Positions 3,551 through 58,815 of a stretch of DNA of 64,000 bases are shown piece by piece. The stretch lies in the NCBI GenBank assembly GCA_016207515.1, contig JACQPN010000009.1, forward strand, positions 62,001 to 126,000. Reading direction: 5' to 3'. The DNA is from Euryarchaeota archaeon (GTDB lineage: Archaea; Thermoplasmatota; SW-10-69-26; JACQPN01). A program made the translations under genes and the position numbers. Under the pieces are notes generated by a model that saw only the letters and a list, made by a program, of their open reading frames with translations, was not told where the DNA came from and made no database searches. Numbering within the stretch: position 1 is the first letter of the stretch; each line of letters opens with the position of its first letter.

Positions 3551-3570
3551 GCGCCCCGGTCGGGATTTGA
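3551..3570 (-). repeat. 20-nt duplicate of the tRNA-Asp 3' end
   Basis: GCGCCCCGGTCGGGATTTGA is identical to 3651-3670, the 3' end of tRNA-Asp (acceptor strand plus part of the T arm, reverse strand). The copies are exactly 100 nt apart. A shorter piece, GATTTGATTCG, occurs at 3564-3574 and again at 3470-3480. Duplicated tRNA 3' ends are what tyrosine-integrase elements leave at attachment sites, but the spacing is far too short for an intact element. A deletion scar or slippage duplication is equally possible. Confidence 0.5.
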
Positions 3571-3651
3571 TTCGCCGGACTTCGGGCTGCAGCCCTCGTC
3601 CGTCTCTCAAACCCGACCGTGTCGCTCGGAAGAGACACGTTGGGACCCGAG

Positions 3652-3724
3652 CGCCCCGGTCGGGATTTGAACCCGAGGCAGAGCCTCGACAGGGCTCTAT
3701 GTTAGACCACTACACTACCGGGGC
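3652..3724 (-). tRNA. tRNA-Asp (anticodon GTC)
   Basis: The reverse strand folds as a complete 73-nt tRNA. The acceptor GCCCCGG pairs with CCGGGGC and the discriminator is G. The D loop has AGTGGTCTA, the anticodon stem is GAGCC/GGCTC with loop CTGTCGA (anticodon GTC), and the T arm is TCGGG-TTCAAAT-CCCGA. CCA is not encoded. A 20-nt copy of its 3' end lies 100 nt beyond. Confidence 0.95.
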
Positions 3725-5217: not shown

Positions 5218-5435
5218 GGCGGATTCCTCAACGGGAGAAGCAGCGTCGCGATAAATATTGCCGGGTTACGCTGGGGACACTTATCATCGCGTGGCGCCAC
5301 CTTCGCTGGCTTGGCCTGCGACGGTCGGCCCCAAGGATGCCAATGATGGATCTACTCGGATTCTTGGATGACTGGCACGGCTCGCCAGCCATCGGTCGCT
5401 TCCACGAAGCGCCCGATGAACCGAGGTCCGACCAA

Positions 5436-5508
5436 TGGGTCTGCTCGGATTTGAACCGAGGTCTAAGGCTCCCAAAGCCCCAAGGATACCAGGCTACCCC
5501 ACAGACCC
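5436..5508 (-). tRNA. tRNA-Pro (anticodon TGG)
   Basis: The reverse strand gives GGGTCTG paired with CAGACCC, discriminator A, anticodon stem GGGGC/GCCTT with loop TTTGGGA (anticodon TGG), and T arm CTCGG-TTCAAAT-CCGAG. It is 73 nt with no encoded CCA. It is the last and only complete member of a tandem array of tRNA-half copies lying upstream of it in its own direction of transcription. Confidence 0.93.
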
Positions 5509-5815
5509 GTGGATGGGTTTCACAACAATCCAAGATACTTGAAAGCTCCCAAAGGCTCGGCGGCTGGAGCGCAGCGACAGCCGACGACGCGGCGGACGAG
5601 CCTATGGCGAGTCCGCAAGCGCCAAGGATACCAGGCTACCCCACAGACCCGAATCGCCGCAAAGAGAACAAGCGACACGTATTCTTGAAGGCTCCCAAAG
5701 GCTCCGAGCGTGGGCCCGGAGGGACACACGAGGATGAGTGGAAGCCGAGGGCTTCCAAGAAACCAAGGATACCGGGCTACCCCACGGACCCGTGGATGGG
5801 TTTCACATCAATCGA
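5509..5815 (-). repeat. Tandem array of two tRNA-Pro 5'-half copies with hairpin inserts
   Basis: The 29-nt 5' part of tRNA-Pro (5480-5508) recurs exactly at 5622-5650 and with two differences at 5763-5791, a period of 141-142 nt. Each extra copy keeps acceptor 5' strand and D arm, then has a ~58-62-nt insert, then an anticodon-arm remnant (AGCCTTTGGGAGC on the reverse strand, 5545-5559 and 5690-5704). No T arm or acceptor 3' strand follows. The spacer TGTGAAACCCATCCAC before the first copy (about 5792-5810) is repeated before the real tRNA. The inserts contain strong hairpins (5561-5583, 5592-5616, 5740-5756). These cannot form normal tRNAs. Whether they are transcribed is unknown. Confidence 0.75.
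5561..5616. repeat. Two adjacent mini-hairpins of the GA-GC-NNN-GC-GA type
   Basis: CGGCTG-GAGCGCAGCGA-CAGCCG (5561-5583) and GCGGAC-GAGCCTATGGCGA-GTCCGC (5592-5616). The stems are unrelated but both loops begin GAGC and end GCGA, so each can close with tandem G·A pairs on a GC-NNN-GC cap. They make up most of the insert inside the middle tRNA-Pro half copy. Confidence 0.6.
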
Positions 5816-5856
5816 AGGTACTTGAAGCCACCACTCTGGTTTCTTGGTCACCTGAC

Positions 5857-11308: not shown

Positions 11309-11748
11309 AACGGATCGAAGCTTGGATCGGCGTGAACGAAGCCGGCATTGAGACGGTTCCTAGGGATGCGGCGGGGGTTTACCGTGTTTACGCGCAAAAT
11401 CCCATAGCGCGGTTACGCGGCAAAGATTCGCGCGGCCTTCTACTGGTGGGCGAGTCGAACTACCTACGGAGTCGTCTCATGGGTTTCATCTATGCTGTAT
11501 CCGGCAAGAAAGAATCGCACAGAGGGGGAGAGAGGTTTCACCAGCTCCATCTTAGCCGCCAATTCCCAATTGCACGGTTGCGAATCAGGTATACCACAAC
11601 TGGTTCAGGCAAGGCCGGCAAGGCGGCAGCGAGGTCGCTCCAAGACAAGGAGCTTATCCGCTACCAAGACAAGTTCGGCGAACTTCCGCCGTTGAACAAC
11701 AACGGAGGCGTCTCATGGAAAAACAGGCCCTTGCGAAAATCCGGGTGA
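11305..11748 (+). CDS. GIY-YIG nuclease-like protein
   Basis: 147 residues, starting in an ATGA overlap with tyrS. The N-terminal half carries the GIY-YIG pattern: AGVYRVYA, then GLLLVGESNYLRSRL about 20 residues later, with the conserved Arg. The C-terminal YQDKFGELPPLN resembles small stand-alone GIY-YIG proteins of bacterial genomes. The fold cuts DNA with a single metal ion; roles include homing and restriction. Middle segments are less GC-rich than the surroundings, suggesting recent acquisition. It stands between tyrS and a duplicated tyrS 3' fragment, as a mobile module would. Confidence 0.65.
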   Translation: MKRIEAWIGVNEAGIETVPRDAAGVYRVYAQNPIARLRGKDSRGLLLVGESNYLRSRLMGFIYAVSGKKESHRGGERFHQLHLSRQFPIARLRIRYTTTGSGKAGKAAARSLQDKELIRYQDKFGELPPLNNNGGVSWKNRPLRKSG

Positions 11749-25541: not shown

Positions 25542-26044
25542 CGAAGCGCAGCCGGTCACGGAACCTCCCATAACCCTTTCTGCAATCCCTTATCGCGGGG
25601 GAGCGACCACCTTCTATTGGCGGTCAAATCCGCTTGCAGGCGCGGGCGTGGCTCGACGAGTCCCGCCCGAAGACAGTGATAGTGTCCGCGGCTTGGTGAT
25701 AAGTGGTGGTCGTGGATCTGGAAGCGCCCGCGCGAAGGGCGCCGTAGCAGTAGTTGCCTGCGATACGCACCAGACCGGCCGAATGTGCCGGACACGAGAG
25801 ACCAGCGCCGACGAAGCGTCCGGTCCGAACCGAAGGACTGGAAGACGCCCCCGCGAAGCCGTAGGAAATCGGGAACGAACCAGTCGAACAAGACGCGGGT
25901 GATCGGCGCCGGAAACGAGCGGGCCAATCTTGCGGCCTCGACATCAAGCCGCAATCGCCATAAGGAGAACCGACCCGAGGCGGGACCAAACCCCGCTGGG
26001 GATGGCTTCGAGCCGTCCTCGAAAGACGGCGGTTCCCGCGAGGT

Positions 26045-26240
26045 GGCGTGGCCCGCTTTCTCCCGCGATTCTTTTTTCGACCTTTCCGGGCCACGGCATA
26101 GGAGGACGAGCGAAGCAAGTCCTCCGGCTGGCGTGGCCCGCTTTCTCCCGCGATTCTTTTTTCGACCTTTCCGGGCCACGGCATAGGAGGACGAGCGAAG
26201 CAAGTCCTCCGGCTGGCGTGGCCCGCTTTCTCCCGCGGTT
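26045..26240. repeat. 85-bp direct tandem repeat, about 2.3 copies
   Basis: Units begin GGCGTGGCCCGCTTTCTCCC at 26045, 26130 and 26215; the first two are identical along their length and the third is partial. Each full unit contains the long inverted repeat GTGGCCCG / CGGGCCAC around a T-rich run (CTTTTTT), and a mini-hairpin GGAGGAC-GAGCGAAGCAA-GTCCTCC (26101-26125 and 26186-26210). The T-run after a hairpin could act as a terminator between tfs and pcn. Confidence 0.85.
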
Positions 26241-58600: not shown

Positions 58601-58741
58601 TCTCAGCCTCCGCTCTGTAGCACCCCGGTGGCTACATAATGGTTCCCTCCGATTCTCGTAAAGGGTCGGTGGGTGTCGGCCGCCACCCGCGCCTTGGCGA
58701 CCTGGCTTCGTGATGCCGCCCCTTCGTTTCACAGCCGCTAT

Positions 58742-58815
58742 CACGACGATTCGACAGCCGCTTTCACTACGATCCAGCAGCCACTCTCACTACGATCCAG
58801 CAGCCACTCTCACGA
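58742..58815. repeat. 23-bp direct repeats upstream of the propeller gene
   Basis: CACTACGATCCAGCAGCCACTCT occurs at 58765-58787 and 58788-58810, preceded by a diverged copy (CACGACGATTCGACAGCCGCTTT, 58742-58764) and followed by CACGAATCT. They end 3 nt before the TATA box CTCTATATTAG (58818-58828) of the 58862 gene, where an activator would bind. Confidence 0.75.

What the first reader, a model, noticed from the sequence alone, without database searches (positions are those of the whole stretch)
5436..5815. Tandem array of tRNA-Pro 5' halves feeding into a complete tRNA-Pro
Three 141-142-nt spaced copies share spacer, acceptor 5' strand, D arm and anticodon-arm remnant. Only the last has the 3' half. 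The other two replace the junction with hairpin inserts. They could be decay products of slippage, or a source of stable tRNA-half-like RNAs that read through into the real tRNA precursor.
Basis: seen in the sequence. Interest (0 to 1): 0.6.

Follow-up and report, generated by a model that had tools for sequence, protein, structure and literature searches.

The report
Archaeal tRNA genes flanked by palindromes
The broken tRNA-proline copies are real, and they are one case of an apparently undescribed DNA repeat family that, across many lineages of one archaeal phylum, flanks tRNA genes with truncated tRNA ends folded into branched hairpins; they are probably not a source of functional tRNA halves.

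Summary
A complete tRNA-Pro(TGG) (5508-5436, minus strand) is preceded by two 5' copies, 142 and 141 nt apart. Each has nt 1-29, a GC-rich hairpin insert and an anticodon-arm remnant.

It is not a local oddity. In this archaeal genome 20 of 46 tRNA genes carry direct copies of their own 3' end downstream and 6 carry copies upstream, against 0.7 and 0 expected. The same architecture occurs in many families of the phylum and is absent from others. Downstream, the unit is a closed three/four-way junction: an inverted copy of the T-arm/acceptor end, then hairpin arms, then a direct copy of the tRNA 3' end. Arms covary strongly between loci, no Rfam family matches, and nearly all model hits lie directly 3' of tRNAs.

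Stem mismatches show no G-U preference (67 G.T to 52 A.C; tRNA stems 67 to 1). Hairpin orientation is mirrored on the two sides of the gene. Both argue for DNA palindromes rather than functional RNA halves. Copy limits match archaeal integrase attachment regions.

Best reading: tRNA-anchored palindromic DNA repeats maintained by recombination. How they move is open.

The parts
5436..5508 (-). complete tRNA-Pro(TGG)
   Evidence: ARAGORN; Rfam RF00005, 55.4 bits
5509..5545 (-). leader of the gene, with promoter-like CTTTCAAGTATCTT
   Evidence: sequence; repeated before the outer copy; promoter role inferred
5622..5650 (-). middle 5' copy, nt 1-29, 100% identical to the gene
5557..5621 (-). hairpin insert of the middle copy; GA/GA hairpins at 5592-5616 and 5561-5583 on the + strand
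5544..5558 (-). anticodon-arm remnant of the middle copy (GAGCCTTTGGGAGC)
5763..5791 (-). outer 5' copy, nt 1-29, 2 substitutions
5700..5762 (-). hairpin insert of the outer copy; contains CCGGGCCCACG, complementary to the D-arm copy CGTGGGGTAGCCCGG apart from a bulge
5690..5704 (-). anticodon-arm remnant of the outer copy (GAGCCTTTGGGAGCC)
5792..5828 (-). leader of the outer copy, similar to the gene's leader
5347..5428 (-). downstream 3' element: GACCTCGGTTCA, two arms, GAATCCGAGTAGATCCA; folds as a T-stem-closed three-way junction
   Evidence: MFE z = -2.2
3651..3724 (-). tRNA-Asp(GTC), second example in the window
3551..3650 (-). downstream element of tRNA-Asp: inverted T-arm copy, GA hairpin, 20-nt direct copy of the tRNA 3' end
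   Evidence: MFE z = -2.6

Best explanation
The array is the upstream form of a family of palindromic DNA repeat elements anchored to tRNA genes. A downstream element is: spacer, inverted copy of the T-arm/acceptor end, one to three hairpin arms, direct copy of the tRNA 3' end (median 17 nt, the second half of the T loop to the discriminator). An upstream element is the mirror image: copy of the tRNA 5' end, with or without leader, arms, then a complementary strand or anticodon-arm remnant. Shown: the anatomy, the genome-wide rule, the spread over families, the complementarity and covariation, the mirrored orientation, and the lack of RNA-type wobble. Inferred: they arise and are kept alike as DNA, by recombination or template switching at the stem-loop-forming attachment regions of tRNA genes. 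The arms spread between loci, the tRNA-derived arms are homogenised against the neighbouring gene, and whole units expand by unequal crossing-over. The tRNA-Pro half copies are products of this process and are probably not functional RNAs.
For: Own-flank against other-flank control: 20 to 0.7 downstream, 6 to 0 upstream. GA/GA hairpins: 32 of 40 strong ones lie within 450 nt of a tRNA, in 5.8% of the sequence; outward orientation 20:3 downstream and 17:2 upstream. Arms are shared between different tRNA loci, in inverted orientation between upstream and downstream flanks. 71 downstream copies were collected from 12 genomes. Aligned elements: 96.6% of cells paired, 49 double changes against 15.3 +/- 2.7 shuffled, almost no wobble intermediates in the arms. 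G.T:A.C is 67:52 in element stems and 67:1 in tRNA stems. The model built on family f28 finds 28 of 30 inspected hits beside a tRNA, and its best hit in this genome lies directly 3' of tRNA-Arg(TCG). Perfect or near-perfect duplications of whole units in G021 show ongoing expansion.
Against: No mobilising enzyme is identified: Y1 transposases and reverse transcriptases are absent from this genome, and integrases do not separate genomes with and without the elements. Strong covariation with conserved loops is also what a selected structure would show. The model's E-value in this genome is modest (0.0026), and its closing helix contains T-arm sequence, which favours places near tRNAs. The f28 sequences come from two genomes of one genus, so covariation cells are not independent events. 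Within the window, copies A and B do not fold better than shuffled sequence (z = -0.8 and 0.1).
Confidence: 0.55

Rival explanations
1. Attachment-site scars or miniature integrative elements. Tyrosine recombinases acting on the T stem-loop/3' end (or on the 5' half) inserted short non-autonomous elements, each leaving a displaced tRNA piece.
For: Kilobase cassettes in the same genome end in exact copies of nt 58-76 of tRNA-Glu(CTC) and tRNA-Arg(CCG), the same limit as the short copies (median 17 nt). G032 tRNA-Thr 5' copies end exactly after the anticodon arm (nt 44). Integrase genes lie next to several tRNAs. A review of archaeal integrases states that they use the anticodon and T stem-loops and the 3' end, and that pTN3-like ones use the 5' half (PMC8371274).
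Against: The cassette ends carry a linear motif (TTACGGGCAAA), not hairpins. Genomes with one integrase (G054, G083) carry elements at many different tRNAs. The inverted T-arm copy is not explained.
Confidence: 0.22
2. Functional structured RNA: the 5' copies, with their own promoter-like leaders, or the downstream junctions are transcribed and act as RNAs or in tRNA processing.
For: Leaders with promoter-like boxes are duplicated with some 5' copies. Strong compensatory change and conserved loops.
Against: No wobble preference. Hairpin polarity reverses upstream. Downstream elements often follow a T-rich stretch that looks like a terminator (inference). No Rfam match.
Confidence: 0.13
3. Ordinary tandem duplication by slippage or unequal crossing-over followed by decay, with hairpins arising by chance in GC-rich DNA.
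For: Some units are perfect tandem duplications that include the trailer (Phe, Gln, Tyr).
Against: Copies almost always keep the outward tRNA end, inverted partners are present, hairpin arms are shared between loci, and AT-rich genomes show the same architecture.
Confidence: 0.08
4. Assembly artefact of a metagenome-assembled genome.
For: The genomes are draft assemblies in many contigs.
Against: Copies are non-identical, and independent assemblies show the same structures at orthologous and other tRNAs.
Confidence: 0.02

Closest known systems
Double-hairpin elements and repetitive hairpin-forming elements of organelle genomes (Allomyces, sponges, cryptophytes; PMC2800124, PMC5910586)
   Same: Short dispersed hairpin or double-hairpin DNA repeats, some near tRNA genes, thought to be mobile.
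   Different: Here the outer arms are copies of the adjacent tRNA's own end and the unit is confined to tRNA flanks in archaeal chromosomes. Sponge hairpins are reported to vary in loops and keep stems; here stems change in a compensated way.
tRNA fragments left by integrated archaeal elements (SSV, pNOB8, pTN3 and pT26-2 types; PMC8371274, PMC3293823)
   Same: Direct repeats of the tRNA 5' or 3' part beside a complete tRNA, with the same limits.
   Different: Units of about 55-180 nt with branched palindromes and no genes, at a large share of all tRNAs, with an inverted T-arm copy.
REP sequences with REP-associated tyrosine transposases (from memory)
   Same: Dispersed imperfect palindromes with conserved tips.
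   Different: tRNA-anchored; no Y1 transposase in this genome.
E. coli tyrT rtT repeats (from memory)
   Same: Repeats that contain the 3' end of the upstream tRNA.
   Different: A single locus; no inverted T-arm junction recalled.
Split, permuted or multi-intron archaeal tRNAs (PMC3218864, title and abstract only)
   Same: tRNA halves and insertions at loop positions.
   Different: The intact gene lies next to the pieces, so no assembly from halves is needed.

Membership tests
Integrase attachment-site repeats | direct copy of a tRNA end beside the intact gene | tested here: met
Integrase attachment-site repeats | copy limits at T stem-loop/3' end or 5' half/anticodon stem-loop | tested here: met
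   median 17 nt; nt 1-44 in G032
Integrase attachment-site repeats | integrated genes or an integrase between the copies | tested here: not met
   units of 56-180 nt hold only hairpins
Integrase attachment-site repeats | recombination by an integrase | not testable with these tools
   needs a biochemical or genetic assay
REP/RAYT | palindromic repeats dispersed in the genome | tested here: met
REP/RAYT | Y1 transposase in the genome | tested here: not met
   PF01797: none in G000 and most carriers
Double-hairpin elements | two tandem hairpins as one unit | tested here: met
   in families f28, f12, f33, f8
Double-hairpin elements | mobility (presence/absence at orthologous sites) | tested here: inconclusive
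   elements present at some tRNA-Pro(TGG) genes and not others, too distant to show an empty site
Retron | reverse transcriptase next to a structured ncRNA | tested here: not met
   PF00078: none in G000
Split/trans-spliced tRNA | no intact gene for that anticodon, halves complementary | tested here: not met
   intact gene adjacent
Known structured RNA (Rfam) | match to a covariance model | tested here: not met
Functional RNA structure | G-U preferred over A.C in stems | tested here: not met
   67:52 against 67:1 in tRNA

The most novel reading that the evidence does not exclude
A previously undescribed class of genetic element, specialised on tRNA genes of one archaeal phylum, that carries or acquires the end sequence of its host tRNA as its closing stem, has a conserved branched fold, and is copied as DNA by a dedicated, still unknown mechanism.
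Probability: 0.25. Interest if true: 0.82.

Novelty: new variant of a known kind. Interest (0 to 1): 0.62.

Why it matters
tRNA genes are the favourite landing sites of mobile DNA, yet here a large share of them, in many families of one phylum, sit inside arrays of their own broken ends folded into palindromes. Such arrays would confuse tRNA annotation and offer decoy attachment sites. They also record how tRNA pieces are duplicated and interrupted at loop positions, a step proposed in the origin of intron-bearing and split archaeal tRNAs. The strand-symmetry test separates DNA palindromes from RNA structure and can be applied elsewhere.

Tried and rejected
Split or permuted tRNA: rejected, the intact gene is adjacent. 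Retron or reverse-transcriptase origin: no reverse transcriptase in this genome. REP/RAYT: no Y1 transposase. Guide RNA: the inverted T-arm copy suggested antisense to the T-arm, but no box motifs were seen by eye and the second strand is sense; dropped without a formal test. Exact GA-hairpin motif as a phylum marker: found almost only in this genome (23 matches; other genomes 0-3), so it marks the lineage, not the family. A search by the window's aminoacyl-tRNA synthetase returned distant, mixed taxa and did not name the organism. Nested insertion of a whole tRNA gene into an older one would explain the 5'-upstream, 3'-downstream rule, but few tRNAs carry both sides and the joint occurrence is not obviously enriched. 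'The inverted partner tracks the copy rather than the tRNA' (62 to 8) is biased by how the partner was found and is not used as proof. Paper searches found no description of the elements.

Full report
The observation. The window holds a complete tRNA-Pro(TGG) at 5508-5436 on the minus strand. Upstream of it, 142 and 283 nt away, are two copies of its first 29 nt (5650-5622 and 5791-5763). Each copy is followed by a GC-rich hairpin insert, then a remnant of the anticodon arm (TTTGGGAGC), then CTTCAAG of the next leader. The outer copy has a leader like that of the gene; the middle copy does not. The best match scores 31.5 against a maximum of 12.5 in 1000 resampled sequences. A 3' counterpart downstream was overlooked: GACCTCGGTTCA, two hairpin arms, GAATCCGAGTAGATCCA (5428-5347), which folds as a three-way junction closed by the T-stem.

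Not a local event. The window lies in a 2.67-Mb draft archaeal genome (phylum probably Thermoplasmatota, an inference from genome sizes and family structure, not tested). I fetched 0.8 Mb around its tRNAs and compared every tRNA with its own flanks and with the flanks of other tRNAs. Of 46 genes, 20 have a direct copy of their 3' end downstream (control 0.7) and 6 have a copy upstream, almost always of the 5' end (control 0; one of the six, Phe, may be chance). Copies obey a rule: 5' parts upstream, 3' parts downstream, same orientation as the gene. tRNA-Asp in the same window is another example.

Anatomy. Printed flanks show chains of hairpins. Downstream the order is: tRNA end, spacer, inverted partner of the T-arm/acceptor end, hairpin arm(s), direct copy of the tRNA 3' end. 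The hairpins of this genome carry tandem GA/GA mismatches near the tip. Of 40 strong ones, 32 lie within 450 nt of a tRNA, and the GA strand points outward on both sides: 20 of 23 on the tRNA strand downstream, 17 of 19 on the other strand upstream. The exact motif is nearly confined to this genome (23 matches; other genomes 0-3). Arms are shared between different tRNA loci, in inverted orientation between upstream and downstream flanks.

Relatives. Same-order genome G001 has a 5' copy at -144 of its tRNA-Pro(TGG), with the hairpin at another position and the same junction GCC-TTCAAG; its tRNA-Pro(CGG) copy bears the CGG anticodon, so copies follow their own gene. G024, another family, has one at -159 with an inverted partner. 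Other families show mainly the downstream form: G005, G010, G021 and G032 have it; G019 and G020 do not. A pattern for the tRNA T-arm followed by its inverted copy is found in 20 of 390 genomes of the phylum with zero control matches, although some of these are convergent tRNA pairs.

One structural family. In G054 and G083 the elements beside many tRNAs align over their whole length: closing helix, a 13-bp arm and a 9-10-bp arm. Of 34 pairs, 13 show double compensatory changes; 96.6% of cells pair, with 49 doubly changed cells against 15.3 +/- 2.7 in shuffles. A covariance model built from these two genomes finds elements in G032, G079, G021, G005, G105 and G278. In a whole-genome search, 28 of 30 inspected hits lie directly 3' of a tRNA, or are the second unit of such an array, and the other two are at contig edges; two genomes without the architecture give none; and the single hit in our genome lies directly 3' of tRNA-Arg(TCG). 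Caveats: the closing helix contains T-arm sequence, and the weakest scores are not significant on their own; one weak hit in the window, at 13.5 kb, looks like chance. Rfam has no such family.

DNA or RNA? In RNA stems, G-U is tolerated and A.C is not. In 186 tRNA genes from these loci the counts are 67 G.T and 1 A.C. In stems of the downstream flanks, found with a scoring that treats all mismatches alike, they are 67 and 52; upstream 68 and 58. The stems therefore look strand-symmetric, like palindromic DNA. The reversed polarity upstream points the same way. This does not exclude transcription, but it argues that the structure is kept or renewed as DNA.

Origin. The 3' copies are typically 17 nt long, from the second half of the T loop to the discriminator base. 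Kilobase cassettes in the same genome end in copies with the same limit, at tRNA-Glu(CTC) and tRNA-Arg(CCG). A review of archaeal tyrosine recombinases states that the anticodon and T stem-loops and the 3' end are used, and the 5' half by pTN3-like enzymes (PMC8371274). Integrase scars are therefore the main rival. Against it: the cassette ends have a linear motif rather than hairpins, and genomes with one integrase carry elements at many tRNAs. Y1 transposases and reverse transcriptases are missing from this genome. I favour recombination or template switching on palindrome-forming tRNA ends, with expansion by unequal crossing-over, for which near-perfect unit duplications in G021 are direct evidence.

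Verdict. The half-tRNA array is real and belongs to a broad family of tRNA-anchored palindromic repeats that I could not find described. A role as a source of tRNA halves is unsupported by sequence evidence and untested by transcription. What copies the elements, and whether the host benefits, remains open.

Noticed in passing
L062 (G000:C15), tRNA-Glu(CTC) 9929-9854 minus; copies at +2285, +4519, +6332: Tandem cassettes of about 2 kb bounded by exact 16-nt copies of the tRNA-Glu 3' end, each preceded by a conserved motif (GTTACGGGCAA...). They carry ORF pairs that look like AbiEi/AbiEii (name by eye, not searched) and no integrase was seen between them.
   Followed up: partly
L061 (G000:C5), tRNA-Arg(CCG); copies at +4659 and +5557: Similar cassette ends with GTTACGGGCAAATCCAAGCGAT before the 16-nt tRNA copy.
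   Followed up: partly
L065 9973-11142 minus; L060; L050; L059: Tyrosine integrase genes directly next to tRNA-Asn, Gln, Glu and Leu genes.
   Followed up: partly
L059 (G000:C13, 6.3 kb): tRNA-Leu(TAG) with encoded CCA and bacterial look beside an integrase; the contig may be contamination or a bacterial element.
   Followed up: no
window 26044-26237: Perfect 85-bp tandem repeat (2.3 copies) that contains a GA hairpin (GAGGACGAGCGAAGCAAGTCCTC) with no tRNA called nearby.
   Followed up: no
window 58731-58815: 23-bp tandem repeat, 3.7 copies.
   Followed up: no
L046 13281-13356: Second tRNA-Val(CAC) call whose first 20 nt differ: a duplicate of the 3' two thirds plus downstream element of the gene at 11687, 1.6 kb away.
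   Followed up: partly
L249 (G032), upstream of tRNA-Thr(GGT): Full-length tRNA-Thr copy with two insertions, after nt 28 and after nt 57, directly upstream of the intact gene.
   Followed up: partly
L067 10477-10356 minus: tRNA-Tyr(GTA) with a 46-nt intron; its 3' end plus trailer is duplicated downstream.
   Followed up: partly
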